NCBI RefSeq assembly: GCF_900108505.1
Contig: NZ_FNWU01000005.1
Location: 1-64,000, forward strand
Length of the DNA: 64,000 nucleotides
DNA from: Halopenitus malekzadehii
Lineage (GTDB): Archaea > Halobacteriota > Halobacteria > Halobacteriales > Haloferacaceae
Direction of reading: 5' to 3'
Position numbers and translations under genes: made by a program
Notes under the pieces: generated by a model
What the model saw: the letters and a program-made list of their open reading frames with translations, nothing else
The model's database searches: none
Told to the model about the DNA's origin: nothing
Shown: one piece after another, positions 20,391 through 63,251 of the stretch
Layout of the letters: each line of letters begins with the position of its first letter
How positions within the stretch are numbered: the stretch's first letter is position 1

Positions 20391-20400
20391 GAGTAAACAC

Positions 20401-21417: not shown

Positions 21418-21420
21418 CCT

Positions 21421-23563: not shown

Positions 23564-23566
23564 CCT

Positions 23567-25029: not shown

Positions 25030-25031
25030 CG

Positions 25032-25244: not shown

Positions 25245-25290
25245 CGACCCGGCCCAAGACAGCAACACGACCCACACGAAACCATCGACG

Positions 25291-26530: not shown

Positions 26531-26532
26531 TT

Positions 26533-28284: not shown

Positions 28285-28286
28285 CG

Positions 28287-28679: not shown

Positions 28680-28681
28680 CC

Positions 28682-31575: not shown

Positions 31576-32039
31576 TGCAGGCGATCGTCCAACTGCGTGG
31601 CGACGTGAACATGAACGCCGAGGTGGAAGACACTCTCGAGATGCTCAACATCAATCGCGTCAACCACGCCACGTTCATCCCCGAGACCGACACCTACCGC
31701 GGGATGATCACCAAGGTCAACGACTACGTCGCGTTCGGCGAGCCGAGCCACGCGGCGGTCGTGGAGACGCTCACGCGCCGTGGCGAGCCCCTCGAGGGCT
31801 CTGCGGACATCGACGATGAGTGGGTCGCCGAACACACCGATTACGACGACGTCGCGTCGCTTGCGACCGCGCTCGTCGACGAGGAGACCACGCTACGCGA
31901 TCAGGGTCTCTCGCCGGCAGTTCGGCTGCACCCGCCCCGCGGTGGCCACGACGGTATCAAACATCCGGTGATCGAGGGCGGCGAGCTCGGTCGACACGCG
32001 ACCGAGGAGATCGACGCGCTTCTGGAGGCAATGCGATGA
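31575..32039 (+). CDS. rpl30: 50S ribosomal protein uL30
   Basis: This 154-residue archaeal-length uL30 begins [20 protein letters not shown] and has the LNINRVNHATFIPETDTYRG core. The ATG at 31575 shares its A with the uS5 stop; a GTG one codon earlier is also possible. Confidence 0.96.
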   Translation: MQAIVQLRGDVNMNAEVEDTLEMLNINRVNHATFIPETDTYRGMITKVNDYVAFGEPSHAAVVETLTRRGEPLEGSADIDDEWVAEHTDYDDVASLATALVDEETTLRDQGLSPAVRLHPPRGGHDGIKHPVIEGGELGRHATEEIDALLEAMR

Positions 32040-32527
32040 CCGACAAGAAGAACCGCCAACGCGGGTCCCGAACGCACGGCGGCGGCAGCCACAAGAACCA
32101 GCGCGGTGCCGGTCACCGTGGCGGTCGCGGCGCCGCCGGACGGTCGAAACACGAGTTCCACAACTACGAGCCGCTCGGAAAGTACGGCTTCAAACGGCCC
32201 GACGGCGCACAGGAGGACATCAGAGAGGTGTCCGTCCAGAAGCTCGACGAGGACGCGGCGCTGTACGTCGCCGACGACGTCGCCGAGGAGGACGGCGAGA
32301 CGGTCGTGATCGACGCCCGTGACGTCGCCGAGGACGGCTATAGGGCGGACGTCGTCAAGGTCCTCGGCGGCGGCCAGGTTCGCGGTCAGCTCCGCGTGAC
32401 GGCCGACGCCTTTACCGCCGGCGCACGCGAGCTGATCGAGGAGGCGGGCGGCGAGGCCGTCCTCTCCGACCGCGCCGAGGAAGCCGAATCAGAAGACACA
32501 TCCGACGCCGAGGACGACGACGCGTAA
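32036..32527 (+). CDS. rpl15: 50S ribosomal protein uL15
   Basis: This 163-residue protein has the Gly/Arg-rich N-terminus (GSRTHGGGSHKNQRGAGHRG) and the uL15/eL18 fold behind it. The final 25 residues are acidic. It lies two bases before secY, the usual order. Confidence 0.97.
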   Translation: MTDKKNRQRGSRTHGGGSHKNQRGAGHRGGRGAAGRSKHEFHNYEPLGKYGFKRPDGAQEDIREVSVQKLDEDAALYVADDVAEEDGETVVIDARDVAEDGYRADVVKVLGGGQVRGQLRVTADAFTAGARELIEEAGGEAVLSDRAEEAESEDTSDAEDDDA

Positions 32528-32529
32528 CC

Positions 32530-33996
32530 ATGAGCTGGAAGGACGCCGCCGAACCAGTGCTCACGCGGATGCCGACGGTCCGGCGTCCGGAGGGCCACGT
32601 GCCGTTCAAGCGGAAGATCGCGTGGACGGCCGCGATCCTGATGGTGTACTTCTTCCTTACCAACATCAACCCGTTCGGGTTGGCTGCGGGCCAGAGCAGC
32701 GACTTCTTCGGCCAGTTCCGGTCGATCCTGGCCGGCGAACACGGATCGCTGCTGCAGGTCGGTATCGGACCGATCGTCACGGCGTCGATCGTCTTACAGC
32801 TGCTCGGCGGTGCGAACCTGCTCGGACTGGACACGAACGATCCCCGCGATCAGGTTCTCTATCAGGGCCTCCAGAAACTGCTCGTGATCATCGTGACCGC
32901 TATGACGGCGGCGCCGATGGTCTTTACCGGCGGGTTCCTGCCGGTCGATACGGCCGTTGCGAATGCGCTCGGCGTGAGCACGTTCCTCGTCCAGCTGATC
33001 ATCTTCGCGCAGGTGTTCGTCGGCGGCGTGCTCATCCTGTTTATGGACGAGATCGTCAGCAAGTGGGGCGTCGGCTCCGGCGTCGGGCTGTTCATCATCG
33101 CCGCCGTCAGCCAGCAGATCGTCGGAGGATTCTTCAGCTGGTCGGCGCTTGGCCAGGTCGGCTTCTTCGCCGGCTGGTACGGCATCCTCTTTGGTGATCT
33201 GACCATCGGGTCGGTTTTCACGCCCGATGGACTCCAGAGCCTGCTGTTCGAGCCCGGAAACCTGCTCGCGCTGTTCACCACGGTGTTCATCTTCGTCGTG
33301 GTCGTGTACGCGGAGTCGGTTCGCGTCGAGATCCCGCTCTCACACGCCCGTGTGAAGGGCGCTCGCGGGCGGTTCCCGGTGAAGCTCATCTACGCGTCCG
33401 TCCTGCCGATGATCCTCGTTCGTGCGCTGCAGGCGAACGTTCAGTTCCTCGGCCAGATCCTCAACCGGACCTGGCAGGGGATGCCCACATGGCTCGGCAT
33501 CTACGGGGATCAGGGCCAACCCGTCTCCGGGTTCTTCTACTACGTGAACCCGATCCAACAGCCCCAACAGTGGATGTGGTTCCTCGGCGAGGCGTCCGCG
33601 GAACCGTGGATGATCGCGATCCGTATCGCGATCGACCTGACGTTCATGATCGTCGGCGGCGCGATCTTCGCCATCTTCTGGGTGGAAACCACCGGGATGG
33701 GCCCGGAGGCGACCGCCAAGCAGATCCAGAACTCCGGGATGCAGATCCCCGGGTTCCGCCGGAATCCACAGGTCGTCGAGAAGGTGATGGAGCGGTACAT
33801 CCCGCAGGTCACCATCATCGGCGGCGCGCTCGTCGGGCTGCTCGCCGTGATGGCGAACATGCTCGGCACCGTCGGCGGCGTCTCCGGAACCGGGCTGCTG
33901 CTTGCGGTCTCGATCACCTACAAGCTCTACGAGGAGATCGCCGAAGAGCAGCTGATGGAGATGCACCCGATGATGCGCCAGATGTTTGGAGAATAG
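32530..33996 (+). CDS. secY: Preprotein translocase subunit SecY
   Basis: This 488-residue protein forms the pore of the Sec translocon. Ten membrane helices are visible, with the plug region near GGANLLGLDTNDPRDQVLYQ, the GSGVGLFI stretch in helix 4-5 and the VRVEIPLSHARVKGARGRFP cytosolic loop that contacts the ribosome. Length and ends match archaeal SecY. It is the last gene of the operon here. Accessory DNA begins immediately behind it; the adk gene often found after secY in archaea is not seen. Confidence 0.98.
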   Translation: MSWKDAAEPVLTRMPTVRRPEGHVPFKRKIAWTAAILMVYFFLTNINPFGLAAGQSSDFFGQFRSILAGEHGSLLQVGIGPIVTASIVLQLLGGANLLGLDTNDPRDQVLYQGLQKLLVIIVTAMTAAPMVFTGGFLPVDTAVANALGVSTFLVQLIIFAQVFVGGVLILFMDEIVSKWGVGSGVGLFIIAAVSQQIVGGFFSWSALGQVGFFAGWYGILFGDLTIGSVFTPDGLQSLLFEPGNLLALFTTVFIFVVVVYAESVRVEIPLSHARVKGARGRFPVKLIYASVLPMILVRALQANVQFLGQILNRTWQGMPTWLGIYGDQGQPVSGFFYYVNPIQQPQQWMWFLGEASAEPWMIAIRIAIDLTFMIVGGAIFAIFWVETTGMGPEATAKQIQNSGMQIPGFRRNPQVVEKVMERYIPQVTIIGGALVGLLAVMANMLGTVGGVSGTGLLLAVSITYKLYEEIAEEQLMEMHPMMRQMFGE

Positions 33997-34014
33997 GGAC
34001 CACAATGTGTCCCC
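33996..34014 (+). terminator. Hairpin at the end of secY
   Basis: GGGAC (33996-34000) pairs with GTCCC (34009-34013), with AC/GT inside, and T-rich sequence follows (GTTTATTTATT). The same T-rich stretch is also the promoter of the next gene. Confidence 0.5.
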
Positions 34015-34020
34015 AGCGTT

Positions 34021-34028
34021 TATTTATT
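34021..34028 (+). promoter_or_regulatory. TATA box of the integrase operon
   Basis: TATTTATT is centred 25 bases before the ATG at 34049, consistent with a leaderless message. Confidence 0.55.
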
Positions 34029-34048
34029 GAGTCCGCGTAGCCGCCGGT

Positions 34049-34669
34049 ATGCCAGACGGGGCTCACAAGAAAGTCAAACTCAACGTAAGGGTCACTTCTA
34101 ACAAGAAAGAGACGTGGCAGAACAGTTTGGACGATGATGAAAATCTTTCATCACTCGTTCGTCGTGCGGTCGACAGGGAGATTAATGACGAGTATATCCC
34201 AAAGAAAGCGATCAATAATCTCTCTGGGAATACTGGCCAGGCCGACGTTGATCTCTCACCACTTCTGGATCAAATCGATGATCTCCAACGCTCCGTGACC
34301 TCTGTTGAAAACAAGATCGATACGATCTCTGTGACTCAAGCAGACGAGGGAGAGGACGAAGACATAGAAGAACTCGCTATGGATCTTCTCCCCCGCCTTC
34401 CGACATACCCTAATGATATTCCCAACGATGTACTCGAAGGTATGGGTGGGATTGGTGAACGAAGTCCACGAGAATTTATTTTGTACATAATGGAAGCACG
34501 CCAAGAAATCTCCCATCTCTCTATTGATGGGAGTGCTCAAAGGCTCTCATCCGAAATAAGGGAACCAACATACCTCGTCAAAGAGGCACTCTGCTATCTC
34601 GAAAACAGCACGACAGAGAACGTGCACAGCGCGATCATTGATGGTACCCGTCACTGGATGCGGCTATGA
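34049..34669 (+). CDS. Integrase-linked protein, ribbon-helix-helix-like N-terminus and coiled coil
   Basis: This 206-residue protein is not named. The first 50 residues (KVKLNVRVTSNKKETWQNSL ... LSSLVRRAVDREIND) resemble a ribbon-helix-helix DNA-binding segment, and residues 70-95 (LLDQIDDLQRSVTSVENKID) a coiled coil. The C-terminal half is alpha-helical with SPREFILYIMEARQEI. Its stop overlaps the integrase start (ATGA). Such a gene pair is common in haloarchaeal integrated elements. It could regulate or assist the recombinase (inference). GC content is lower than in the ribosomal region. Confidence 0.7.
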   Translation: MPDGAHKKVKLNVRVTSNKKETWQNSLDDDENLSSLVRRAVDREINDEYIPKKAINNLSGNTGQADVDLSPLLDQIDDLQRSVTSVENKIDTISVTQADEGEDEDIEELAMDLLPRLPTYPNDIPNDVLEGMGGIGERSPREFILYIMEARQEISHLSIDGSAQRLSSEIREPTYLVKEALCYLENSTTENVHSAIIDGTRHWMRL

Positions 34670-35790
34670 GAAACGACAAAGGCCAGTACGCGAGTCCCGC
34701 AGACAAACAGATTTCGGGGGAAATGGAAGAGCTACTCGGACGGTACCTCGAAAGCTTACGGGAGCAAAAAGACCGGACAAAGGATTCGACGGTCAATACA
34801 CGTCGGCGTGAAGTACGATACTGGTTAGCCTTCTGCGAATCGAACGACATCGACCCCCTTGCTGCCACTACCGAGGATGTCAGAGGGTATATCCAATTGA
34901 ATTCTAATCTGGCCGACACGACTGTTGGTTCGTACTATCGGTCAGTACAATCGTTTTACAGCATCGTTGCGAATGACGCCAGAGACGATCAGCTTGAGCT
35001 CGTTAATGGACATCCTTGTGAGGATAGTAATACGATTGATCTGAAGGATGATTATAACATCTATGAAAATAAAGCCGAGTACAAGATCCAGCATGACCTC
35101 ACTGCGAGCAATAGTGATGAATTGCGGGAAGGTACGAGTGAGGTCCTAGCACTCAAGCCGGAACAGGTGGAGTCTCTGTTTGATGCCGTCCCGGGGAAAA
35201 CGCCTCAAGCAAAGCTTCGAAACGAGATCGCAGTCCGGCTAAACTGGTATACCGGATGTCGTAGTGTGGAACTGTCGCGCCTAAAGATTGAGAATATCGA
35301 CTGGGAAGAATGCAGTATTGATGTTAGGAGCGCAAAATTAAGCGTGAAAGAAAACAGCGGATTGATTCGCCGTGATGTGTACTTCCCAGAGGAGTTCAGG
35401 TTCCAGTTAAAACGGTGGTGTGAAAGAATCCGGCACGCATTTTCGGCAGAAGCTAAGCCGGATTCTGGGAATATCCTCGTCACAACTCATAACGATGAGA
35501 TGTCTGGTCCCCAGATCAATGATGTCGTCAAGAAAGCAGCTCGGAACGCAGAGGTCCAGCGAGCGCTACGCCCACCTAATCCTGATCCAGATGACGAAGT
35601 CAAAGAGTGGTTTGTAACCACCCATCGCATCCGACGATCTGCGATTTCACACTGGGTGAACGATTGTGAGTCATTGGGTCTTCATCAGGTAAGAAGAATC
35701 GCCGGTCATGCTCGTATTGAGCAGACAATGGAATATGTTGAAGATGATGACGACCAGATAGCAGTAGACTATCAGAAAGCGATGCGATGA
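34666..35790 (+). CDS. Tyrosine recombinase/integrase
   Basis: This 374-residue protein has an N-terminal SAM-like core-binding domain (about 15-105, STVNTRRREVRYWLAFCESN) and a catalytic domain from about 160. Catalytic residues are visible: Arg in YTGCRSVELSRL, His-x-x-Arg in THRIRRSA, His in RRIAGHARI and the Tyr in TMEYVED near residue 360. It is the likely integrase of the plasmid-like element behind secY. Attachment sites were not identified; no tRNA gene is adjacent. Confidence 0.88.
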   Translation: MRNDKGQYASPADKQISGEMEELLGRYLESLREQKDRTKDSTVNTRRREVRYWLAFCESNDIDPLAATTEDVRGYIQLNSNLADTTVGSYYRSVQSFYSIVANDARDDQLELVNGHPCEDSNTIDLKDDYNIYENKAEYKIQHDLTASNSDELREGTSEVLALKPEQVESLFDAVPGKTPQAKLRNEIAVRLNWYTGCRSVELSRLKIENIDWEECSIDVRSAKLSVKENSGLIRRDVYFPEEFRFQLKRWCERIRHAFSAEAKPDSGNILVTTHNDEMSGPQINDVVKKAARNAEVQRALRPPNPDPDDEVKEWFVTTHRIRRSAISHWVNDCESLGLHQVRRIAGHARIEQTMEYVEDDDDQIAVDYQKAMR

Positions 35791-51240: not shown

Positions 51241-51346
51241 CTTCGCAGGCAGTCTCATATGAACTGCTCCTGAGTAGGTAACTGAAGAGACCCGAGTTGC
51301 GGGAGTATTTGTGAAGAACCAGAGACCGTGCGAACGCAGCCAATCC

Positions 51347-51784
51347 CTAGAACTGACTCGTCAGTGCAAATCGGCTATCGCGTTTCGTGACAATACCGAC
51401 GTTTCCTAACTGTTTGAGTCGCCGGTAGACCGTTGCACGACTCACATCAATCCAATCCGTGAGTTCCGCAGCCGTTCGTTCAGTATCCAAATGGTACAGG
51501 AGTTGGATGGTCGACCCAGCAATCAGGTCAGCGAAATCGACGTGCGGGAATTCACGTGCGAGGTCTGCAAACCGTTCGGTCGGTTCAGCGTTCGACAACG
51601 AAACCCGGTATCGACCGTGTTGCTGCTCTCTGGTGACTAGGCCAAGCTCGGCAAGATTCGAGACCACGCGGGACGTGTGACTCGGATCCCACTCAAGCGC
51701 ATCAGCTAACCCCCGCTGGACCACGCCATCTCCCCCCTCGGTACTAAGGTATGAGAGGACAGTGAGTTCCGGTTCAGAGAGCAC
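51347..51784 (-). CDS. Transcription regulator with two winged-helix domains
   Basis: This 145-residue protein has an N-terminal MarR-like winged helix (about 5-60, DGVVQRGLADALEWDPSHTS, RVVSNLAELGLV) and a second one near 95-140 (ERTAAELTDWIDVSRATVYR, RLKQLGNVGIV). It probably binds the 15-bp inverted repeat that surrounds its own TATA box, so it should regulate itself. The neighbour at 51940 is divergent and could be controlled too. Target genes beyond this are unknown. Confidence 0.8.
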   Translation of the reverse strand: MLSEPELTVLSYLSTEGGDGVVQRGLADALEWDPSHTSRVVSNLAELGLVTREQQHGRYRVSLSNAEPTERFADLAREFPHVDFADLIAGSTIQLLYHLDTERTAAELTDWIDVSRATVYRRLKQLGNVGIVTKRDSRFALTSQF

Positions 51785-51788
51785 TTTG

Positions 51789-51833
51789 TCTCAAATCACG
51801 CAATCTGTTTATACGATCTTGCGTGTTTTGAGA
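51789..51833 (-). promoter_or_regulatory. Promoter and operator of the HTH regulator
   Basis: TCTCAAATCACGCAA (51789-51803) and TTGCGTGTTTTGAGA (51819-51833) are inverted repeats with 14 of 15 matches. The 15-base spacer holds the minus-strand TATA box GTATAAAC, 26-30 bases before the ATG at 51784. A protein bound here would block both TBP and TFB. Confidence 0.75.
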
Positions 51834-51939
51834 TGCAGCCTATCCAGCGCTGTCGTGAACCCAGCTAAAGCAGAAATAATTCAGCGTTCCATAGATATAT
51901 ATCGCCAGAGCAAGTAGCTATAGCAACGGACTCCCACAC

Positions 51940-52515
51940 ATGGACCTCACAGACATCCCCGACGATGCATACGACGGCGAGGAGTCACCGCCTGATCTCG
52001 ACGCATTAGAATCACCTGACTCGCTCCTCAAAGGGGGATCAATCCGAGAGCGGCTCCTCGACGTTGTCATCGGACTCCGGACGCCGACGAAGGTCTCGAC
52101 GATCGCCGAGCGGGCCGATTGTGACACCGAGACAGCCAGGGACTACCTAGAGTGGTTCGACGAGATGGGAATGGTACAGCGGCACGATGGTCGTCCAGTC
52201 CGGTACGAACGCAACGGCGCGTACTTCCAGTGGCGACGCATCGACCGGATCCGCGAGGAATACTCCGAGCAGGAGATCATTGACGCCCTCGACGACACGC
52301 TCAACCAAATCGAAGACTACAGAGCGCAGTTCGATGCAACGCACCCGGACGATGTGTCCCTCGTCGACGCCACTCAGGAGCAGAATCTATCCGCCGAAGC
52401 AGCCTGGGAAGCACTCTCCGAGTGGGAGACACTCGAAAAGCGAGCCGCGCTCCTCGACGAAGCACGCCGAAACAATCCGGTCGCCGGTAGCAATCCCGGT
52501 CCAGTCGATGCCTGA
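51940..52515 (+). CDS. DUF7342-like winged-helix protein
   Basis: This 191-residue protein has an acidic N-terminus, a winged helix at about residues 30-90 (RERLLDVVIGLRTPTKVSTI, AERADCDTETARDYLEWFDE) and a helical C-terminal half (SEQEIIDALDDTLNQIEDYR). The pattern fits haloarchaeal DUF7342 proteins, usually found as the first gene of a two-gene operon. Its stop overlaps the ATG of the next gene by eight bases. It may be the DNA-binding or antitoxin part of the pair. Confidence 0.7.
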   Translation: MDLTDIPDDAYDGEESPPDLDALESPDSLLKGGSIRERLLDVVIGLRTPTKVSTIAERADCDTETARDYLEWFDEMGMVQRHDGRPVRYERNGAYFQWRRIDRIREEYSEQEIIDALDDTLNQIEDYRAQFDATHPDDVSLVDATQEQNLSAEAAWEALSEWETLEKRAALLDEARRNNPVAGSNPGPVDA

Positions 52516-52945
52516 GGATACATCAGACCCATCCAGTCGCGGCCCCATCGATACGGAAATTCTCGACCGGATCGCTGCCCACCTTGCCCGGAGCGATCGA
52601 TTCGATGACATCGAAACGCAACCGCCGTATGCTCCGAACGCTGTCATCGCCAACTACGATCTCGGATACTTCCCAGGCGGGGTCACGCGTGCGTACCTGC
52701 GGATCCGCTGGTTCGAGACCGACGACTTCAGCATCCACTATTCAGAGCAGTACCAGACCGGAAACTCGTGGGAATGCCGATGGGGTCGGCACCCGAATGA
52801 CCATAACACCCGCGACCACTTCCATCCGCCCCCAGATGCACCGACACCTGGAGAGGACGCTGATTATCCAAACGAATGGCGAGACGTACTCTCAACCGTG
52901 CTTACCCGTCTTGATAACCGGATCAAAGCTTTCTGGGACGAGTAG
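52508..52945 (+). CDS. Partner protein of the DUF7342-like gene
   Basis: This 145-residue protein is not in a characterised family. It has mixed alpha/beta pattern (ILDRIAAHLARSDRFDDIET, LGYFPGGVTRAYLRIRWFET, FSIHYSEQYQTGNSWECRWG) and a His-rich stretch RHPNDHNTRDHFHPPPDAP near residues 95-115 that could bind metal. It is translationally coupled to the regulator in front. By layout it could be a toxin or small nuclease; no active site can be assigned with certainty. Confidence 0.65.
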   Translation: MPEDTSDPSSRGPIDTEILDRIAAHLARSDRFDDIETQPPYAPNAVIANYDLGYFPGGVTRAYLRIRWFETDDFSIHYSEQYQTGNSWECRWGRHPNDHNTRDHFHPPPDAPTPGEDADYPNEWRDVLSTVLTRLDNRIKAFWDE

Positions 52946-53064
52946 TGATTTCAATACGGAAACGTAGAGCCAAGTCCTACAGAACAGCGTTCAGTTGAGC
53001 ACAATTGTAATTGCTCTTAGGTGTGGGCTCAGCTGCAGAACTTCAATAAATAAAGAAGACTACG

Positions 53065-54114
53065 TTAGTCTGAGAGTTTCTTTTTCGCACAGTTGACGTT
53101 CTTGTTTATGTTGCTTACTTCCATCCCTCGAATCTCCGCCCAGTGAGCCTGTGTCATCAGGTCATAGTGCTCCGTAATGAGGTAATCAATACTTTCAGAA
53201 CGTGAAGCATCTGCTTCGACAAGTGCGCGAACGTCGTAGCCATCTGGAATACCCTCGCCCTCTGCCACGTCCACACGGACAGTTGGGTAACTAGGAAGGA
53301 AGTTCGACTCAGAGAGTTGATGCACGACGGCATCTCGCGTCTCGGTGTTCAGGTTCAAGAAGTCCCCAGCGAGGCTATCAACAGGGAACCTGTCGGCCCA
53401 TGGCTTAGCGGTCCACTGGTGGACAGTGACCGGTTCGTGAGGGTTCCCCAACAGCGCTTCCTTAGCGCACAGGTTGACGCTCGAAGCGAACTTGCGCTCA
53501 AAACCACGGCGTCGCTGGTTGAGCGTTTCGAGTGCTTCGACAACGTCGTTGTGGACTTCCTCACTATCGCGGACGTACTCGATGGTGGTCTCCAGTTTGT
53601 CCCACGCGATCTCGTCGTCGTACGTCACGTTGAGCGTGCCGACACGCTTGACACCGTACCAAGCATCCACGATCCGGGTTTTGTTCGGCACAGTTACGAG
53701 AACGTCCACGCCACTCTCCGGAATGTGGTAGATTCTGTAGTTAACTTCCGCTGGGCCCTTGATTTTCACGCGGTGTTGCCAGTTCTCTGGGATAGTCCAG
53801 AGGTGTTCACCAGCAAGAACCGCGTCACGTTCAGCGGGGACACGCTTGGTCCATCGATCCCGCGACTCTCTTCCGCGGGAGACAACGACGTGTTCGTCGT
53901 TTTCCCGATAGGCGTAGAGATAGCCGTCTGCCGAGTGGTGCCTGACATCGTCGTTGCTGAACCGGACTTCATCAGAGTCGCGGATTGTCTCGGTGCCGCC
54001 GTCGGTCATCGCCTCTATACTCGTGTTATCGGTGTTGGATTCTGTCATAGTGGATTCCTTGATGCTGGTCTCAGCCTCATCATCGCCGATTGTCTGGTTA
54101 TGCACGCGTCGCAT
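53065..54114 (-). CDS. Hypothetical protein with C-terminal helix-turn-helix
   Basis: This 349-residue protein has an acidic, disordered first part (1-55), a beta-rich middle (55-165) and a helical second half. The final 40 residues (YLITEHYDLMTQAHWAEIRG, MEVSNINKNVNCAKKKL) form a helix-turn-helix like sigma-region-4 or plasmid regulator HTHs of haloarchaea. The ATG at 54114 is supported by TTTTAAAA about 30 bases upstream; a second ATG at 54048 is possible. No partner gene is evident. Confidence 0.65.
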   Translation of the reverse strand: MRRVHNQTIGDDEAETSIKESTMTESNTDNTSIEAMTDGGTETIRDSDEVRFSNDDVRHHSADGYLYAYRENDEHVVVSRGRESRDRWTKRVPAERDAVLAGEHLWTIPENWQHRVKIKGPAEVNYRIYHIPESGVDVLVTVPNKTRIVDAWYGVKRVGTLNVTYDDEIAWDKLETTIEYVRDSEEVHNDVVEALETLNQRRRGFERKFASSVNLCAKEALLGNPHEPVTVHQWTAKPWADRFPVDSLAGDFLNLNTETRDAVVHQLSESNFLPSYPTVRVDVAEGEGIPDGYDVRALVEADASRSESIDYLITEHYDLMTQAHWAEIRGMEVSNINKNVNCAKKKLSD

Positions 54115-54142
54115 ACTGCAAACCCGGTAAATTTGTGGTGAC

Positions 54143-54150
54143 TTTTAAAA
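54143..54150 (-). promoter_or_regulatory. TATA box of the gene at 54114
   Basis: TTTTAAAA is centred about 32 bases before the ATG at 54114, giving a leaderless or very short-leader message. Confidence 0.45.
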
Positions 54151-54203
54151 CCAATGCAGCAAGGGGTGTGTATCCCTCATATTGTCGAGCCTGAAGGGGT
54201 TGA

Positions 54204-54383
54204 AAGGGCCGAAATACAGATTCACAGCGGGTGACCCAGACTCACAGCACGACCATACCGACCTACTTATAAATGACACCGATCCCGACCGGGACACGAA
54301 TACATAGACACCTTGATGGAAAAACCAGAAATTGCCAAAACTCAGTGACAGCAGGCATATTCCACAAGTGAATGATTGCGGCG
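54204..54383. repeat. Dispersed gene-end repeat, copy B (with insertion)
   Basis: AAAGGGCCGA.A.AGA.TCACAGCGGG and ACCCAGACTCACAGCACGACCATACC match copies A and C; after about 75 unrelated bases the AAGTGAATGATTGCGGCG part follows. On the minus strand this reads RNHSLVEYAC, a decayed version of the same gene end. The rest of the 480-base gap (54115-54592) holds no clear gene. Confidence 0.45.
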
Positions 54384-54592
54384 CTGCTTGTGCCAACTCG
54401 TTCGCTCCGCAATGTTGAACACTTCGACGACATCCAACCCAATTGATAGGACTCTTACCGAATCCAGAATATGTATCTGCATACCAATAATTCTGGGTAG
54501 GGCCTCAGAACCCGAAGAGTACGGCTAACCACCAGTTGACAAATTACACTCGATCGACAACTTATACTACTGAATCACGTATCCCCGATACG

Positions 54593-54901
54593 ATGCGGCG
54601 GAACCGAGGGGCGGTGAACTACGCAGCAGGAACAGCTACGTCGAAAGCCGGCCTCGTCAATATGTACATTCACGGCGGGGCGATCATCTCAGCACTCACG
54701 CTACTACTAGGACTATTGAGTGCTGGATCGCTCGACGCAGCAATTCAGGTGTGGTGGGAGTTCTATATGGCGAAAGTCCTACCGTGGCCGATTGATGAAC
54801 TGCTTACTACAGCCGGGTTTATCGATCTGATTGTCTCCCATGCGATTACGATCAGTGTCGGGTTGATGTCTGCAACGAGCAAATGGTGGCTTCGCGTCTA
54901 G
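54593..54901 (+). CDS. Membrane protein, 102 residues
   Basis: From ATG 54593 the protein starts MRRNRGAVNYAAGTATSKAG, then two hydrophobic helices (HGGAIISALTLLLGLLSAG and FIDLIVSHAITISVGLMSA) with a Trp-rich loop between. No family recognised. It ends directly before a short repeat (54906-54921) and opposite to kwaB. Confidence 0.55.
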   Translation: MRRNRGAVNYAAGTATSKAGLVNMYIHGGAIISALTLLLGLLSAGSLDAAIQVWWEFYMAKVLPWPIDELLTTAGFIDLIVSHAITISVGLMSATSKWWLRV

Positions 54902-54905
54902 TAGG

Positions 54906-54921
54906 AATTCCGCATAGAAAC
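54906..54921 (+). repeat. Short direct repeat on the left of the defence segment
   Basis: AATTCCGCATAGAAAC matches AATTCCCGCATAGAAAC at 61375-61391 with one extra C there; AGTA precedes both. The two copies bracket the segment with kwaAB, an integrase and the PLD-ATPase gene. Confidence 0.45.
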
Positions 54922-54928
54922 CCGCGTT

Positions 54929-55900
54929 CTACAGGCGTTGTCCACTGTCGATCTCCCACTGGGTGCCCATAATCTCGTCTTCAGCATACTTTCCACTCAA
55001 CAACTTCAGTAACTTCCACGTGTGCACGTACTTCCCCACTTCCAACTCAATCTCCCCATTCTGACGGGCGTATTCTAAAGAGAACCGTTGATCTAACTCG
55101 TATGTCTCAATCATCTGCTCGATCTGGTTCGGGGTTGCCTGCTCGTGAATTCCAGCGTCATAGACTTCGTACATTCCACGAAGAATATTGATGTGGCTCA
55201 ACAGCCACTCCGTCATCTTGCTCTTGTTCGCCAGACAGATGCCAGCATCTTCAAATCCTTCAATCGCTTCTTTCGCCCGTTTCTCGTACTCTTCCCGCAT
55301 ATTAAATATGCTCTCGAACGTTTTCGGACTGATGACGAACAACCACCCGTCGTAATATACCGCCGTCACGTTGGGCTGAATCACGACCATATCCCCCCGG
55401 AATCGTTCATATTCCTGCCCGCTATACAGGAGCGACAATTTGTTCGTCGTTTCAACCAACTCAACACCGCGGTACGACTGGACTCCAACCAACACCTTCC
55501 CATCCGGTTCACTGATCCGGATTAATTGGAAATCCGGTTTTGGATCCGCGGTGTACGTTGTCGGCCCGTGATGGTCTCGTGAAATCAGGATCTCGAATAA
55601 TTCGCTCCCAGGAAGGTCAGTGACGGGAGCACACTGCATAATGGAGTCTTCAGCGATGGTGTTCGCCACGTCTAACGACCGAGCTCGTGTGTCCCCATTC
55701 CTGAGATCGTCGATGTGTGATGTGAGATCCTGAGCAAAGATGTCTGCCACCTCTTGCTGGACCGTGTGCCCGATCGGGAGTTTCCCGACTTCCGGTGTTT
55801 CACCAGTATCCCTGACTAAGAGGAATTCTGCTTCTGTGTTCCCGGTCGCGTATTCACGGGCTTCTTTGAGTTTTTCAGCCGGGTCCAGGTTCAGTGACAT
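54929..55900 (-). CDS. kwaB: Kiwa defence protein KwaB (DUF4868)
   Basis: This 323-residue soluble protein matches DUF4868, renamed KwaB after the Kiwa anti-phage system. Typical parts are the N-terminal LVRDTGETPEVGKLPI strand, VEL..TNKLSLLYSGQEYERF near residue 150, VIQPNVTAVYYDGWLFVISP near 175 and TFESIFNMREEYEKRA near 195. KwaB is reported to act with the membrane protein KwaA, which senses infection, while KwaB binds DNA. The partner gene lies directly upstream with one base between. Low GC fits transfer. Confidence 0.8.
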   Translation of the reverse strand: MSLNLDPAEKLKEAREYATGNTEAEFLLVRDTGETPEVGKLPIGHTVQQEVADIFAQDLTSHIDDLRNGDTRARSLDVANTIAEDSIMQCAPVTDLPGSELFEILISRDHHGPTTYTADPKPDFQLIRISEPDGKVLVGVQSYRGVELVETTNKLSLLYSGQEYERFRGDMVVIQPNVTAVYYDGWLFVISPKTFESIFNMREEYEKRAKEAIEGFEDAGICLANKSKMTEWLLSHINILRGMYEVYDAGIHEQATPNQIEQMIETYELDQRFSLEYARQNGEIELEVGKYVHTWKLLKLLSGKYAEDEIMGTQWEIDSGQRL

Positions 55901-55901
55901 A

Positions 55902-56510
55902 CTATGGTGCTAATGCTGTTGTATGGTCTAACGGAACGACCTCGACTTTATCGCGTGCGTCGCTCTTTGGTTTGGATTCTGGTGACATTATCTTTTCTTC
56001 TAATGACCCGTCTGAAATGAGTAACAACACTTGGTCATCACTGGTGAGTTCATACACCTGGTAGCCCCGCATACCCAGCATCGGATTCACGTGTAGATGC
56101 CCGGAATTGATTTGGAGAACACCGAGTACGAAGAAGAATACGACGAAAATTGCGAGGTCAAGTCCTTTCGTGAAGTCGAGTCCTGCGAACACGAAGACGT
56201 AGACGAGTAAGTAGGTGGACAGGAGCTCGTTCCGTTTTTGGTACGTGTCGATTGGGCGTTGTGTCGTCGCACGGTCCGAGTGAACCGCGACGATATGATA
56301 GACGAGAACGGAGAAGATCACACAAAGAATGAAGATACTACCAGTCAGGTACGAGAGTCCGACTTGCAAACCAACATAAGGAACAGGGAAAACATCAATC
56401 AGCATCGGGCCGGCGTTCCAGAGTTTGAGCCCCATGATAATGAAGAGTGGAACGTAGGAGCTGACGAAGAGGATGATTTTGATTGGTTTCCGGAACTCCC
56501 GAACGACCAT
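55902..56510 (-). CDS. kwaA: Kiwa defence protein KwaA-like, four-helix membrane protein
   Basis: This 202-residue protein has four membrane helices (about 11-30, 43-75, 95-112, 115-132) and a soluble C-terminal domain of about 65 residues. Length, helix number and position directly before kwaB fit KwaA; sequence resemblance itself was not testable here. KwaA would sit in the cell membrane and report virus entry to KwaB. It is the first gene of the two-gene operon. Confidence 0.7.
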   Translation of the reverse strand: MVVREFRKPIKIILFVSSYVPLFIIMGLKLWNAGPMLIDVFPVPYVGLQVGLSYLTGSIFILCVIFSVLVYHIVAVHSDRATTQRPIDTYQKRNELLSTYLLVYVFVFAGLDFTKGLDLAIFVVFFFVLGVLQINSGHLHVNPMLGMRGYQVYELTSDDQVLLLISDGSLEEKIMSPESKPKSDARDKVEVVPLDHTTALAP

Positions 56511-56710
56511 TGCGCGTGACTAGCCTCGCCAGTCAAATAATTGCTCGCCAAACAGGGGTATCGTTCAAAGGCTTGTATCTAGAAGAACCGCATACCGTCA
56601 CGATACCGGGTGATGTCCGTCCCCGTGTCTTTCCCTCTGCCACAATCAGATTGTAGTGCTCCATTCTGGAACGAGTGACAATCTGACGAGCGTAGAACGC
56701 CTACAGCGCA

Positions 56711-57709
56711 TCAAACACTCGGCGCTATTGACCCGTCTGCTTCTGGGAGACGTGTATAGCCAGGGTTCTCAAGCATCGAAACATACGCTTGGTCAATATC
56801 CCGGCCAGACAGGTGTACATATCGTCCTGGGACTCGGGAGCCTGGAACCCAGCCAAACCACGCACACATCTGCGCTTCAGTGAGATAATTCGCCAGGTAC
56901 GTCGCTCGACTGTGTCTGAAGTGATGCGGATTCACCGGTTTCTGAATCCCGGCTTGTTCGCTAGCACGATCTAAAATACGTAAACGAATGTACTGGTAAC
57001 TGATTGTCTCATCTGGAGACCCTTGCTTCGTGTCGATTTTACACCAGAGTGGCGCGTCAGGGCGTCGGTTCGGGTGTGCTGTTAGCCATGACTCAAGATA
57101 CGATTCAGATTCGAGGAGCAAGAGTCGGCGCGACCCGGTTTTCCCCGACACAACCATCTGTTTTCCGAGTGCCGTCTGTTCGATATGCCCAACTTCTAGG
57201 TCGATGAGTTCTCCGATCCGCGCTCCGGTTTCCCATAAGACGGCTACAAATGCACGATCACGGTCGTTATGACACGCTTCTAATAGAGCTTGAACATCTG
57301 CCGGAGTGAGCAGACTCTGCGGTAAAATCCTCTTTTGTTCCACGGGGCCACGTCGAATCCACTTTGTCTCCTCAGGGTCTTCTCCATCGTTCAACCACTT
57401 CCAGAACTGCTTGATCGCTTGCTTGTAATCAACGACAGTAGAGGAAGATGTTCCGCGTGTGTACAGCCACGCAACTAAATCAACGATCGCCTCTTTGTCC
57501 AGATCCACGAACCGTGTTTGTCCCACGTGATCCGTAATGATCTTGAAATGAGCAAGCACCTTCTGCTGTTGCGCCGAACTAATATCTGAAAGAACCATGT
57601 CACGATGGTACTCTTGTATCAATTGCTTATTTTCGGGGTGTATGTGTGTCGCCGACTCGATATACGCTAACGTTCGAGTCACCGCTGCCTCATAATCCAT
57701 TGTAGGCAT
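56711..57709 (-). CDS. Tyrosine recombinase/integrase
   Basis: This 332-residue protein has an N-terminal core-binding domain (about 50-135, QQQKVLAHFKIITDHVGQTR, SSSTVVDYKQAIKQFWKWL) and a catalytic domain with Arg in ETGARIGELIDL, His-x-x-Arg in HHFRHSRAT, a Gly/Trp (FGWVPGS) at the second-His position and the Tyr in GRYVHLSGRD. It is of the archaeal XerA/integrase type. The ATG at 57709 is preferred; the longer frame upstream is Cys-rich shadow sequence. It lies between Kiwa and the PLD-ATPase gene and may have brought this segment in. Confidence 0.87.
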   Translation of the reverse strand: MPTMDYEAAVTRTLAYIESATHIHPENKQLIQEYHRDMVLSDISSAQQQKVLAHFKIITDHVGQTRFVDLDKEAIVDLVAWLYTRGTSSSTVVDYKQAIKQFWKWLNDGEDPEETKWIRRGPVEQKRILPQSLLTPADVQALLEACHNDRDRAFVAVLWETGARIGELIDLEVGHIEQTALGKQMVVSGKTGSRRLLLLESESYLESWLTAHPNRRPDAPLWCKIDTKQGSPDETISYQYIRLRILDRASEQAGIQKPVNPHHFRHSRATYLANYLTEAQMCAWFGWVPGSRVPGRYVHLSGRDIDQAYVSMLENPGYTRLPEADGSIAPSV

Positions 57710-57866
57710 ACTGCTCCTGAAGGTATCCAGCGAAGATAACACGAGCGGTGAATTCCTCTCTTGTGATCGACAGTTCACCGCTACAATCGAACATAGGTGA
57801 AACTGATTCTCAGCATCACACCACAGCGATAACCGTCTCAAAAAGAGCAGCCCGTCGCTAGGAGCG

Positions 57867-60161
57867 TCAACTGAACAATCCTCGGACGCGGCCGAGCACC
57901 CCGCCGGCACTTTCAGACTTACTCGTTTCCGTTGCTGTTTCTTCGCTCACCCGTCCATCAAGTTCAACACCAGCTGGCGGCTCTCCCAACCAGTCAAGGA
58001 ATTCGTCAGGTGATTTGATCAGCAGGTCGCGGCCACGGCGTTCAACACGGGCAACGGTAGGCGGATCCCGCGCATACGTGTAGGTGTCCGTCGACATCTC
58101 TTCGGGGAACGACACGCGGAGCCGATCGCCTTGGTCTTCAGTGGTAATATCTTCTCGCGCAAGCAGGTCGAACCATCGGTCACGTCCCGCGTCATGCTCT
58201 TGTTCGGCGGGGCGTCGTGGGAACCACTCTGGCACGTCACGATCAGCATACTCGTAGAACTCCAGCATCACGGCACGTGCCGTCCGTAACGCATCGTCAT
58301 CATTCGAAAGCGTCAGCTCTCGGGTCAGCATTTCGTGGGTGAACCAGAGGAACAACGGATTATCCTGCTCGATCAGCCGGTTGACCTCGGCCTCACCCTT
58401 GTAGCTCGTATCGAAATTCACGTTGAAGTGCAGGATCTTCGAGCGGTTCCGGAACCATTCATCCGGCCGTTTGTCGTTACTGATGAATGCGAACAGCGGG
58501 AAGCTCGCGTCTGGTGTCCAGTTCCCCCAGTAGTTTCGGAACGTATCCAGTCGGTTCACGGTGTCTTTCGTGATGTCATCGACGACGACGGGGAACGCAG
58601 TATTCGCAGACCGCATTCCCCGTACTTTCCGCTTCCCGACCTCGTCGGCATCAACCGGATTCACGACTCGCCCCCCGCTAATCATCGACAGCACGAACTG
58701 TGCGAATGTTCCTTTTCCGGCGTCCGACTCACCGTAGATGTAGAGGTTTGGAAGCGCCTTGTCAAGGTCAATCCCGTACTGATCGTAGAATGCTGCATCA
58801 CGGTTCGCAAACGGAGCCCAAAACATCCACAGCAACGCCTCGGCCATATGCGCTTTCACTGCGTCTTCATCGTTGCAATTCCCGTACTTATCCACCGTCT
58901 CAAAATACCCCTCTAAATCGGACAAGGCGGTATCAACGGTACCTGGATCGTCAGGCAGCGGCTGTCCTACCCGGTAGACTCGCCCATCAGTATGGAAGCG
59001 TAGTGCACGCCCGAATTCAACCGGGGCATCATCACCTGTTTGCGTCCGATAGACACGCATTGTCGGCACTTCATAGACATCGCGCTTGTACTGCTGAACT
59101 GCCTGTGGCGTCGTCGTGAGTGAATCGCCGGAGAGAGACGCGTCGTAGTCGGTCATTCGAGCCAGCGCCTCAATCGCATCATCGCTGTGCCCCAGCAGGG
59201 AAAGGTTGATCCGTGTCTCACTCTCATCACTCGGATCCAACTCTTCGGCTGATGTCTCACTCTCACCGTCACTGTCATCTGACTCGTGGTGCTGCTCGTC
59301 GACTTGCTCTTCGGTACCCTCACTCAGCTCCGTCTCGTCGCCAAGTACCAAATCAACTTCATCGACCTCTGATTCAATCCGTTCATCAAGCCGTCCGTGA
59401 AGCTCACTTACCTCGTCACGAGTCTTTACCTTGCCCTCTGTGTACAACGAGACCACTTCCGCCCGGTCATCAGATGTCCGCTCCAGTCGTTCGGTGAGAT
59501 CATCGAGGAATGGACCGTCGTTATTGTAGGACCGGTGCTCCTCATAGAAATCCACAAAATCGCCCCACAGCGATGTATCCGTCTCCGTCTCGAAGACGAC
59601 CCCCGTGTTCGCTTGCCGCGTCCACGCGTTACTCGACAAGTTCGGCGACCCTACAATCGCCGTCGCTGGCCGCACCGTCTCTGTCCCCGCAGTATCTTCA
59701 GACTCACCTGTATCAGTCCCACCACTACTTGCGGTTGAGTCCGAATCGGTCCACTCGAAGGTTTGCTGTGACGCATCAGTCTCACCACTCCTGTCCGAGT
59801 CGTCACTCTCAGCGCTGTACTCGATCAGGTAGAGTTTGCTGTGCACTTCCTTCGTCTCGCAAAGATAGATCACCAACTTGTCGTCGCGTTTGAGGTGTTC
59901 AAGCCGATCTGCAAGTTCCGGCTTATCGATGAGCCGCTCTCGATAATCCGCAACGTCACCCACGACTACTTCCAGTTGTTCAAGCGACTCAACGCGGTCG
60001 AACAATTCGAGGATGAACTCCGGTGAATCACAGTACGTGACGACACGCATCCGGACAGCGTCCTCAAAGTACGTTTCGAACCGCCCGTAGCTCCTGAAGA
60101 GCTCGACGTGTCCCGCTGTTTCAGCCCTGCCGCCCAGCCGGAGATCAAACTGCTCCGCCAT
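57867..60161 (-). CDS. Phospholipase-D-like nuclease fused to a P-loop ATPase, candidate defence protein
   Basis: This 764-residue protein joins an N-terminal PLD-type domain to a C-terminal ATPase. The PLD domain (1-200) has one HKD half-motif: His107-x-Lys109 (EVHSKLYLIE) and Gly-Ser-x-Asn (GSPNLSSNAW, 171-180), split by an acidic insert. An acidic linker spans 265-320. The ATPase part (about 435-640) has Walker A GESDAGKGT (477-485), a hydrophobic strand with two Asp (VVVDDI, Walker B) and AFISND near 555 as a sensor-like motif. PLD-like nucleases with one HKD act as dimers. Position beside Kiwa and an integrase suggests defence against viruses. Not identical to any named system I know. 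Confidence 0.75.
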   Translation of the reverse strand: MAEQFDLRLGGRAETAGHVELFRSYGRFETYFEDAVRMRVVTYCDSPEFILELFDRVESLEQLEVVVGDVADYRERLIDKPELADRLEHLKRDDKLVIYLCETKEVHSKLYLIEYSAESDDSDRSGETDASQQTFEWTDSDSTASSGGTDTGESEDTAGTETVRPATAIVGSPNLSSNAWTRQANTGVVFETETDTSLWGDFVDFYEEHRSYNNDGPFLDDLTERLERTSDDRAEVVSLYTEGKVKTRDEVSELHGRLDERIESEVDEVDLVLGDETELSEGTEEQVDEQHHESDDSDGESETSAEELDPSDESETRINLSLLGHSDDAIEALARMTDYDASLSGDSLTTTPQAVQQYKRDVYEVPTMRVYRTQTGDDAPVEFGRALRFHTDGRVYRVGQPLPDDPGTVDTALSDLEGYFETVDKYGNCNDEDAVKAHMAEALLWMFWAPFANRDAAFYDQYGIDLDKALPNLYIYGESDAGKGTFAQFVLSMISGGRVVNPVDADEVGKRKVRGMRSANTAFPVVVDDITKDTVNRLDTFRNYWGNWTPDASFPLFAFISNDKRPDEWFRNRSKILHFNVNFDTSYKGEAEVNRLIEQDNPLFLWFTHEMLTRELTLSNDDDALRTARAVMLEFYEYADRDVPEWFPRRPAEQEHDAGRDRWFDLLAREDITTEDQGDRLRVSFPEEMSTDTYTYARDPPTVARVERRGRDLLIKSPDEFLDWLGEPPAGVELDGRVSEETATETSKSESAGGVLGRVRGLFS

Positions 60162-60314
60162 ACTGTTAGTTACCAGTTACACAACTCGGTCTGATAACCG
60201 TTCACCTCAGAGCGGAACAGATGATCGCACCCAGAACACTCTCAATCTGGAAAGGTGGATTCCGTGAACTACCCGGTATTCGCCCTACCTGTGCGAAGAA
60301 GATCGGCGAAGGCG

Positions 60315-60629
60315 TCATTCCGCGCGATATTTCAGAGTCTCGCGGGCATAGTATGCGTCATCCCGCTCGCTGTCCGCGACCCGCTCAAACAATCGCCGCG
60401 AAATCTGCTTCGTGACGACCTCACCATCCTCGATCGTCCAAGCGAACGGTTCTTTCGGGTCAAGACCCCACTGCCGGAGAATCTCCCCGTCGACCCGCAA
60501 CGATTGGACAAGCTCGTCGCCATACTCACTGGCTTTCTCTCGGCTCAAAACCAAGGTATCGAGAACCCCGTCGTCGTGCGCCTTCGGTGTCGCCCACTCA
60601 ACCTTCCATTCCGAGTCGAGCTCGTTCAT
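60315..60629 (-). CDS. Small hypothetical protein next to the PLD-ATPase gene
   Basis: This 104-residue acidic protein has a beta-start (EWKVEWATPK), a small segment SLRVDGEILRQWGLDPKEPF, then TIEDGEVVTKQISRRLFERV. It recalls AbrB/antitoxin-like or small regulatory folds but was not recognised. It is upstream of the PLD-ATPase gene on the same strand with 150 bases between and could be its partner or antitoxin. A GTG one codon earlier is possible. Confidence 0.5.
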   Translation of the reverse strand: MNELDSEWKVEWATPKAHDDGVLDTLVLSREKASEYGDELVQSLRVDGEILRQWGLDPKEPFAWTIEDGEVVTKQISRRLFERVADSERDDAYYARETLKYRAE

Positions 60630-60736
60630 CACTAGTTCCAGTTGAGCGGTCGAAAATCAGTACAATAAGCACGAGTGGTTCGGCCGATGAAATCTGGTTG
60701 CGAATATACCGATAGGACACAGACTCCCAACAGCAT

Positions 60737-62471: not shown

Positions 62472-63251
62472 ATGACCAACGGTTGCACCGCGGACGATAT
62501 TGCTACCGCAAACCCAGAAATATGCCCGGCTGACGACGTTTCGACGGCGGCAGACTGGCTTACGGAACGCGACTACGACTCGGCACCGGTGTTCGAAGAT
62601 GCTCGGCCAGTTGGCTACGTGACACGAGACGCCGCAGAAGGAGCCTCGCCAGACACGTCACTCGCAGAGATTACAGAACCGCTAACAGTCGATGTCCTCA
62701 TTGCCAGCGACTCCCCACTCGATACAGTTCTCGAAGCACTCTATGACCGCCCGTTCTACTATCTCGCGGACCGAAACCAAGTTACCGGGATCCTCACCCG
62801 TGCAGACCTCAACACCGAGCCAGTCTACCAACACCTCTACACCAAACTCTCACAGCTCGAACAAGCCTTCCGGAAGACAATCCAAGAACACGTGCCAGAT
62901 TGGCGCGACACCACACCGCTTCATCCAGAGGTACTGGACGACATCGACGAACGCCTTGCTGATGCGAAAGACGCCGGCGTCGCACTCGATCCGATTCACT
63001 ACGCTCAGTTCTCAACACTCGTGACCATTATCGGAAACAGCGACGCTGCATCACAAGCACTCGACTTCGATGCCGGGCACCAAGCAAGCAGCCAACTCGA
63101 CCCAATCACAGATCTCCGGAACGATGTCGCCCACTCAACACCGGTCATACAGAACACAGACCGCGGCCTCACCGAATCTGGTCGAACAATCACTCATCTT
63201 CTTGAGCAGTACCGAATTATCGAGGAACTCCTTACCACCCAAGAGAATTGA
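62472..63251 (+). CDS. CBS-domain protein with C-terminal HEPN-like domain
   Basis: This 259-residue protein has a CBS pair in residues 1-115 (VSTAADWLTERDYDSAPVFE, then PFYYLADRNQVTGILTRADL), which usually binds adenine nucleotides. The helical C-terminal part (120-259) contains Arg216-x4-His221 (LRNDVAHSTP), the R-x4-6-H motif of HEPN RNases, in the usual place before the last long helix. A nucleotide-sensing domain joined to an RNase-like domain suggests a regulated toxin or antiviral effector. HEPN can also be non-catalytic, so activity is unproven. Confidence 0.72.
   Translation: MTNGCTADDIATANPEICPADDVSTAADWLTERDYDSAPVFEDARPVGYVTRDAAEGASPDTSLAEITEPLTVDVLIASDSPLDTVLEALYDRPFYYLADRNQVTGILTRADLNTEPVYQHLYTKLSQLEQAFRKTIQEHVPDWRDTTPLHPEVLDDIDERLADAKDAGVALDPIHYAQFSTLVTIIGNSDAASQALDFDAGHQASSQLDPITDLRNDVAHSTPVIQNTDRGLTESGRTITHLLEQYRIIEELLTTQEN

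What the first reader, a model, noticed from the sequence alone, without database searches (positions are those of the whole stretch)
57867..60629. PLD nuclease-ATPase fusion as a candidate new defence system
One protein joins a split HKD motif (HSK and GSxN) to a P-loop domain with Walker A GESDAGKGT and VVVDD, linked by very acidic spacers. The ATPase part looks like an AAA/SF3-type motor rather than the SF2 helicases found next to PLD proteins in DISARM and similar systems. It is flanked by an integrase, Kiwa and a small possible partner (60315). I know of no named system with this order.
Basis: partly seen in the sequence, partly recalled or inferred. Interest (0 to 1): 0.75.

Follow-up and report, generated by a model that had tools for sequence, protein, structure and literature searches.

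The report
Argonaute-partner nuclease living without Argonaute
A salt-loving archaeon carries a protein that joins a DNA-cutting domain to a ring-helicase-like motor; relatives team up with an Argonaute immune protein, but here, and in most relatives, the Argonaute is missing while the protein is still kept intact, so it probably destroys foreign DNA on its own or with other partners.

Summary
The 764-aa protein (57867-60161, minus strand) joins a PLD nuclease to a P-loop motor. It is not an unnamed family: it is homologous (55% identity) to AgaP, the Argonaute-associated PLD protein of the haloarchaeal APAP system (Cheng et al. 2024, PMC11442185), which clears plasmids and is toxic without its Argonaute.

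Three things go beyond that paper. (1) The C-terminal half is a Cch/SaPI-Rep-like AAA+ helicase fold (Z 13.4 and 12.8; next best 9.7), the most constrained part of the protein; the paper's text has no hit for ATPase, AAA, Walker or P-loop. (2) This copy has no Argonaute: none nearby, none detected in its genome. 35 of 55 family-level genomes with an AgaP homologue have no detectable Argonaute. The Ago-less clade is under strong purifying selection (dN/dS 0.06-0.11), and its sister still has Argonaute. (3) Other AgaP clades sit beside an accessory Mre11-Rad50-NurA-HerA set or a UvrD/PD-(D/E)XK set.

Kiwa is a separate insertion and the 105-aa ORF is not an obligate partner. Best reading: a motor-driven, Argonaute-independent nuclease effector. 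Not shown: activity, oligomer, what restrains it. New variant of a known kind.

The parts
57867..60161 (-). AgaP-family protein, 764 aa: PLD nuclease + Cch/SaPI-Rep-like AAA+ motor
   Evidence: ORF; homologues; structure
59835..59843 (-). H107-S-K109, first half of the PLD active site
   Evidence: invariant in 43 of 43; the equivalent H105A and K107A in N. pellirubrum AgaP abolish toxicity (PMC11442185)
59673..59816 (-). acidic disordered insert (residues 116-163) that splits the HxK and GSxN motifs; holds QQTFEW
   Evidence: pLDDT under 50 at 119-162
59640..59651 (-). G171-S-P-N174, second half of the PLD active site
   Evidence: G, S and N invariant in 43 of 43
57954..59225 (-). middle domain plus AAA+ motor, residues 313-736
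   Evidence: AlphaFold2 pLDDT 88.5, pTM 0.87; Cch Z 13.4, SaPIBov1 Rep Z 12.8
58707..58733 (-). Walker A GESDAGKGT, residues 477-485
   Evidence: G477, G482, K483 invariant in 43 of 43
58575..58589 (-). Walker B VVVDD, residues 525-529
   Evidence: D529 invariant in 43 of 43
58443..58478 (-). sensor-1-like N562 to arginine-finger-like R573 (role names recalled, not computed)
   Evidence: both invariant in 43 of 43
57870..57905 (-). C-terminal GGVLGRVRGLFS, family-wide terminal peptide after an acidic linker
   Evidence: pattern in the last 25 aa of 59 of 63 AgaP against 4 of 592 other predicted genes
60315..60632 (-). 105-aa ORF just upstream; mobile small family, not an obligate partner
56711..57709 (-). 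tyrosine recombinase/integrase, about 332 aa from the conserved start; syntenic in four relatives, absent in others
52944..56663 (.). Kiwa cassette (KwaA 55902-56510, KwaB 54929-55900, 349-aa ORF): a separate insertion, not part of the AgaP unit

Best explanation
The protein is an Argonaute-independent member of the AgaP family: an ATP-driven DNA-tracking nuclease that destroys extrachromosomal DNA. The N-terminal PLD domain cuts DNA without a metal; having one HxK/GSxN set, it must pair with a second copy, as Nuc, BfiI and SauUSI do. The C-terminal AAA+ domain, folded like the self-loading initiator helicases Cch and SaPIBov1 Rep, probably assembles into a ring on DNA, moves along it and holds or gates the PLD domains, so that cutting happens only on DNA the ring has loaded on (plasmid, replicating virus or DNA end). 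In ancestral or sister systems an Argonaute chooses the DNA and restrains the nuclease. This lineage lost the Argonaute and relies on another control: the motor itself, the acidic loop in the active-site motif, low expression, or a host factor. SHOWN HERE: homology, domain folds, invariant residues of both active sites, absence of Argonaute, purifying selection, association of other clades with DNA-processing modules. [quoted passage not shown] INFERRED: ring, translocation, gating, Argonaute-free defence.
For: Homology to N. pellirubrum AgaP: hit H2, 55.4% over 95% of the query; the function of that protein is from PMC11442185. PLD fold: NgoAVII R Z 11.7, Nuc Z 11.0, SauUSI Foldseek E 5e-5. 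Motor folded alone: Cch Z 13.4 (239 aligned, 4.2 A) and SaPIBov1 Rep Z 12.8 (202 aligned, 3.8 A), next 9.7. Catalytic and ATPase residues invariant in 43 of 43. Own genome: 0 Piwi and 0 matches to an 8-row haloarchaeal Ago profile; no Ago remnants near the gene. 35 of 55 AgaP-bearing genomes have no detected Ago. dN/dS 0.06-0.11 between four Ago-less copies, 0.01-0.04 in the motor. Sister pair L092/L093 has Ago directly upstream, clade support 100. Other clades next to accessory Mre11-Rad50-NurA-HerA or UvrD/PD-(D/E)XK genes.
Against: In the one tested homologue AgaP without Ago was toxic and could not be established (PMC11442185), so an Ago-free copy needs a control that I did not find. Walker A lacks the usual S/T after GK (G or D in all 63), so ATP hydrolysis is not certain. 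Fragmentary copies occur among close relatives (G006, G099, G065), a sign of loss. The fold match is to helicases of replication modules; a fold shows no function. Enrichment of defence genes around Ago-less copies is only suggestive: 56 against 27 PADLOC families over 100 neighbours and 100 control genes, and the control is main-chromosome sequence.
Confidence: 0.6

Rival explanations
1. It is a replication or mobilisation protein of the integrated element: a PLD-type nickase fused to a self-loading initiator helicase, playing the part that HUH nickase plus SF3 helicase plays in other elements.
For: The motor's nearest solved folds are the Cch and SaPIBov1 Rep initiators. An integrase gene is next to it; homologues are common on plasmids (23 records).
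Against: The homologue restricts plasmids and is toxic (PMC11442185). Homologues sit with Argonaute, helicase-nuclease or Mre11-Rad50-NurA-HerA genes. The integrase is absent from L089 and L091 while AgaP stays. No relative in 50,697 phage records or in the viral contigs scanned.
Confidence: 0.12
2. It is a leftover toxin: an orphaned effector of an APAP system on its way out, harmless because silent.
For: No Ago in the genome. Truncated copies in G006 and G099 and a 52-aa remnant in G065, same genus.
Against: dN/dS 0.06-0.11 among four Ago-less copies with dS 0.33-1.70, every catalytic residue kept. The same Ago-less block is 91-94% identical in Haloarcula, Halorubrum, Halobellus and XH8.
Confidence: 0.12
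3. It is the toxin of a toxin-antitoxin or addiction pair, with the 105-aa protein just upstream as the antitoxin that replaces Argonaute.
For: The 105-aa ORF is directly upstream in the window and in four relatives at 88-89% identity. AgaP alone is toxic (PMC11442185).
Against: In L089 it is broken (TAG inside) while AgaP is intact; no match in L091. Relatives at 53-67% occur alone in many genomes; the seven loci read had integrases, an ATPase or a restriction-like gene nearby in most, AgaP in one.
Confidence: 0.08
4. It works as in APAP with an Argonaute supplied in trans or too diverged to be found.
For: 20 of 55 AgaP-bearing genomes do have an Ago somewhere, and PF02171 missed at least the Ago pieces in G100 that the profile found.
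Against: Own genome has 0 by both searches at 99.6% estimated completeness.
Confidence: 0.05

Closest known systems
AgaP of the haloarchaeal APAP system (Natrinema pellirubrum; Cheng et al. 2024, PMC11442185)
   Same: homologous over 95% of the length at 55% identity; same split HxK...GSxN site (61 residues between here, about 50 in theirs)
   Different: no Argonaute nearby or in the genome; the motor half is not mentioned in the paper (0 hits for ATPase, AAA, Walker, P-loop)
SauUSI (PMC7913695)
   Same: one chain with an N-terminal PLD nuclease and an ATP-driven motor; dimer through the PLD domains there
   Different: SF2 motor and SRA reader in SauUSI; AAA+ Cch-like motor and no recognised reader domain here
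CglI/NgoAVII restriction systems (PMC4267653, PMC5737866; search listing only)
   Same: PLD nuclease of the NgoAVII R type, ATP-dependent
   Different: there the nuclease and a DEAD-family ATPase are separate proteins with a B3 reader domain (passage in PMC7913695)
Cch of SCCmec and SaPIBov1 Rep self-loading helicases (PDB 5dgk, 8tch)
   Same: fold of the motor, Z 13.4 and 12.8
   Different: they are replication initiators; no PLD domain (recalled); none of 32 family members matched the Pfam DUF927 model at E up to 0.1
Thermus ICETh2 Ppol/Hel (PMC7693054)
   Same: mobile-element primase-polymerase/helicase genes; loss of Ppol resembles loss of Argonaute in letting in environmental DNA (abstract)
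   Different: a separate primase-polymerase, no PLD nuclease; homology not tested

Membership tests
AgaP protein family | sequence homology to N. pellirubrum AgaP | tested here: met
   H2, NC_019963.1, 55.4% identity over 95%
AgaP protein family | HxK and GSxN split by about 50 residues | tested here: met
   61 residues; but 42 of 54 scored homologues have 15, so the split is not family-wide
APAP system (Ago plus AgaP) | long-A Argonaute encoded next to AgaP | tested here: not met
   none near the gene, none in the genome
APAP system (Ago plus AgaP) | AgaP toxicity held back by Ago; plasmid clearance | not testable with these tools
   needs expression in haloarchaea
Cch/SaPI-Rep-type AAA+ helicase (DUF927) | fold of the helicase core | tested here: met
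   Z 13.4 and 12.8, next 9.7
Cch/SaPI-Rep-type AAA+ helicase (DUF927) | match to the Pfam DUF927 model | tested here: not met
   not among families at E up to 0.1 for 32 members
Cch/SaPI-Rep-type AAA+ helicase (DUF927) | hexamer with helicase activity | not testable with these tools
   biochemistry needed
SauUSI-type ATP-dependent PLD endonuclease | PLD nuclease domain | tested here: met
   7clg among top PLD matches
SauUSI-type ATP-dependent PLD endonuclease | SF2 tandem-RecA motor | tested here: not met
   motor positively identified as an AAA+ fold
DISARM | PLD protein DrmC with DrmA/DrmB and methylase | tested here: not met
   no PADLOC family for the protein at E up to 1; the nine neighbours scanned hit Kiwa families, plus single weak matches: PDC-M39B (KwaB ORF) and a chance-level DrmC match (E 0.046) of the 105-aa ORF
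Kiwa (KwaA+KwaB) | KwaA and KwaB pair in the window | tested here: met
   PDLC00213 E 4.6e-20; PF16162 E 2.4e-16. A separate system, absent at this site in L086-L088 and L090

The most novel reading that the evidence does not exclude
AgaP is not an Argonaute accessory at heart but an old, free-standing haloarchaeal weapon: a mobile-element initiator helicase turned into a DNA-tracking nuclease, plugged in turn into different targeting modules (Argonaute, UvrD/PD-(D/E)XK helicase-nuclease with an exonuclease-like neighbour, accessory Mre11-Rad50-NurA-HerA), and in the window's lineage a one-gene defence system.
Probability: 0.35. Interest if true: 0.78.

Novelty: new variant of a known kind. 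Interest (0 to 1): 0.58.

Why it matters
The published model says AgaP is a toxic nuclease kept in check by Argonaute. A lineage that lacks Argonaute yet keeps AgaP under strong selection breaks that model and gives a natural experiment: what holds the nuclease back, and how does it tell foreign DNA from the chromosome? A Cch-like ring motor in the half of the protein that has not been described offers a testable answer, and would be a replication helicase fold put to use in DNA destruction.

Tried and rejected
Pfam, NCBIfam, PADLOC and PHROGs on the protein gave only weak PLD or chance matches and nothing for the motor; searches of solved-structure sequences gave nothing for the motor either. 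Phages and the viral contigs gave no relatives. The 105-aa ORF as an obligate partner was rejected; Kiwa as part of the system was rejected (no KwaA/KwaB match in the other surveyed loci). Ago remnants by the gene: none above chance. A PIP-box-like reading of QQTFEW/QMTL in the acidic insert was noticed, not tested. The careful tree did not finish in time, so label-change counts (Ago at least 4, Mre11-Rad50-NurA-HerA at least 8) rest on the quick tree with five long-branch rows left out. The PADLOC comparison used a random 100 of 222 neighbours from 25 Ago-less loci against a random 100 of 262 control genes; a list of 13 loci (near-duplicates, fragments or otherwise set aside) was left out beforehand. 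One sampled neighbour (L096:5552-7636) is itself an Ago remnant, so L096, labelled 'none' by clustering, is not truly Ago-free. The NurA list was cut short by the tool, so the nine co-located cases are a floor read from the listed rows. SF2-type motors did not appear among the best rows for the motor.

Full report
WHAT IS THERE. The ORF at 57867-60161 (-) encodes 764 aa. H107, K109, G171, S172 and N174 of the PLD site and G477, G482, K483, D529, N562 and R573 of the P-loop domain are identical in all 43 aligned homologues. Sequence libraries see only the PLD part, weakly: RE_NgoFVII at E 4e-5 and PLDc_2 at E 4e-3, both below their cut-offs. Nothing sees the motor.

WHAT FAMILY. tblastn against plasmids gives 23 records, 15 with at least 80% of the query covered in one place; hit H2, in Natrinema pellirubrum DSM 15624, is 55.4% identical over 95%. 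There a Piwi gene precedes it, while the PLD-motor gene itself is annotated as three small hypothetical genes. I take that locus to be the ago-agaP operon of Cheng et al. 2024 (same strain and gene order; PMC11442185: I saw the abstract, the first part of Results, the whole Discussion and passages). They showed that AgaP alone is toxic to Haloarcula hispanica through H105, K107, G157, S158 and N160, that Ago suppresses this, and that the pair clears a plasmid and weakens a single-stranded DNA virus. The text has 0 hits for ATPase, AAA, Walker and P-loop and 0 for orphan, solitary and standalone. Literature searches showed no other paper on AgaP's motor or on Ago-less AgaP in this library; subscription journals are largely missing from it.

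THE MOTOR. AlphaFold2 on the whole protein gave pLDDT 77. Its N part matches PLD nucleases (NgoAVII R Z 11.7, Nuc Z 11.0, SauUSI). Residues 313-736 folded alone gave pLDDT 88.5 and pTM 0.87. Against solved structures, the SCCmec helicase Cch (Z 13.4, 239 aligned, 4.2 A) and SaPIBov1 Rep (Z 12.8, 202 aligned, 3.8 A) stand clear of the next row (9.7), followed by MCM and D5-type helicases; Foldseek ranks Cch first and SV40 and JCV large T next. So 'AAA/SF3-type rather than SF2' is right, and can be sharpened to Cch/SaPI-Rep-like. The first residue after Walker A GK is G or D in all 63 full-length homologues, not S/T, so hydrolysis must be measured, not assumed.

ARGONAUTE ASSOCIATION AND ITS ABSENCE. 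In 170 family-level genomes, 55 have an AgaP match (some only fragments) and 26 a Piwi match. 13 of 27 Piwi places lie under 3 kb from AgaP. A more sensitive 8-row Ago profile raised genomes with MID/PIWI matches to 27, the union to 29; its other matches are to the N-terminal domain only and were not counted. 20 of 55 AgaP genomes have any Ago and 35 have none; Fisher p 1e-5 for the genome-level link (relatedness not corrected). The window's genome has none by either search. Among 67 loci (window plus 66 from genome contigs), within about six genes on either side, clustering finds Ago in 17 (9 of them with UvrD/PD-(D/E)XK genes too), Mre11-Rad50-NurA-HerA in 12, UvrD/PD-(D/E)XK alone in 2 and none of these in 36 (one of the 36, L096, has an Ago remnant).

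THE WINDOW'S LINEAGE. Its clade (window, L086-L091, L094) has no Ago; its sister is Halosimplex L092/L093 with Ago directly upstream; the nine rows tested (L094 left out) form one branch with support 100. Loss of Ago in this lineage is the simplest reading, though change counts alone cannot tell gain from loss. No Ago remnant is visible by the gene. Between window, L086, L089 and L091 dN/dS is 0.06-0.11 overall and 0.01-0.04 in the motor, so the gene is used without Ago. Broken relatives do exist: C-terminal or N-terminal pieces in G006 and G099 and a 52-aa piece in G065.

OTHER PARTNERS. Accessory Mre11, Rad50, NurA and HerA genes (HerA, Rad50 and NurA confirmed by Pfam; Mre11 by its metallophosphoesterase annotation and position) sit beside AgaP in several clades and in different orders: downstream on the same strand in L035, L064, L065 and L083, upstream in L062, L068, L127 and L138. 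NurA occurs in 166 of 170 genomes, mostly once; at least nine genomes have a NurA gene within about 10 kb of AgaP (G015, G068, G076, G085, G086, G087, G107, G128, G153; read, list truncated). UvrD-like, PD-(D/E)XK and UvrD/PD-(D/E)XK-fusion genes follow Ago-AgaP in one clade and precede Ago-less AgaP in another. I know of no report of these links apart from a remark in PMC11442185 that helicase genes occur near some ago-agaP operons.

NEIGHBOURS IN THE WINDOW. Against Haloarcula japonica L086 and three others, window 51318-52943 and 56664-60633 run together (91-92% identity), so the 3.7-kb Kiwa cassette between them is an insertion, flanked by a 13-bp imperfect repeat TTCTGG(G/A)ACGAGT at 52931 and 56664. 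The integrase is in those four but not in L089 or L091. The 105-aa ORF family is found in 21 of 170 genomes, mostly away from AgaP, often near integrases.

TWO FAMILY TRAITS. The wide HxK-GSxN split, presented as an AgaP hallmark, is 47-61 residues in the window and N. pellirubrum-like clades and 15 in 42 of 54 scored homologues. A terminal peptide of the kind GFLSRL closes 59 of 63 AgaP proteins against 4 of 592 other genes: a likely docking tail (inference).

MECHANISM AND NOVELTY. The best reading, a motor-driven nuclease that can work without Argonaute, is inferred from anatomy plus published behaviour of a homologue; ring, movement and control are not shown. As a protein family it is known; as an Argonaute-free form with an unnoticed Cch-like motor and alternative partners it is a new variant.

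Noticed in passing
window 52931-56676: Kiwa (KwaA+KwaB) plus a 349-aa ORF form a clean 3.7-kb insertion with a 13-bp imperfect direct repeat, next to an integrase gene; empty site seen in four other genomes.
   Followed up: partly
L093:5388-7949, L098:6595-7722: AgaP-linked haloarchaeal Argonautes have an N-terminal domain (about residues 1-116) similar to part of a 375-aa exonuclease-like neighbour of AgaP and to 310-330-aa proteins in many haloarchaea; it looks like an OB fold by eye.
   Followed up: partly
window 59673-59816: The acidic insert keeps a short motif QQTF/QMTL/QVTL across two clades though the rest varies; it resembles a clamp-binding (PIP-like) peptide, not tested.
   Followed up: no
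window 62472-63251: CBS-domain protein with a weak, below-cut-off match to NCBIfam DS11_antiphage (E 3e-6).
   Followed up: no
window 20179-35790: Ribosomal-protein and SecY operon on the main chromosome, followed by a second integrase gene at 34666-35790; the accessory island may begin there.
   Followed up: no
L031, L032, L043 (downstream of AgaP): ThiF-family adenylyltransferase with two small proteins, DEAD/DEAH helicases and an RNase H-like protein follow AgaP on several plasmids.
   Followed up: no
G156:C9:3838-5505 (L074): AgaP-like segments lie in an unusually long open frame of 2110 aa; fusion or frame artefact not resolved.
   Followed up: no
L037:6942-9002; L168:3902-5014: Acetobacter and Komagataeibacter plasmids carry a PLD-plus-motor relative (canonical GKT in the Acetobacter one); a Thermus oshimai plasmid has a motor-region relative of about 370 aa.
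   Followed up: partly
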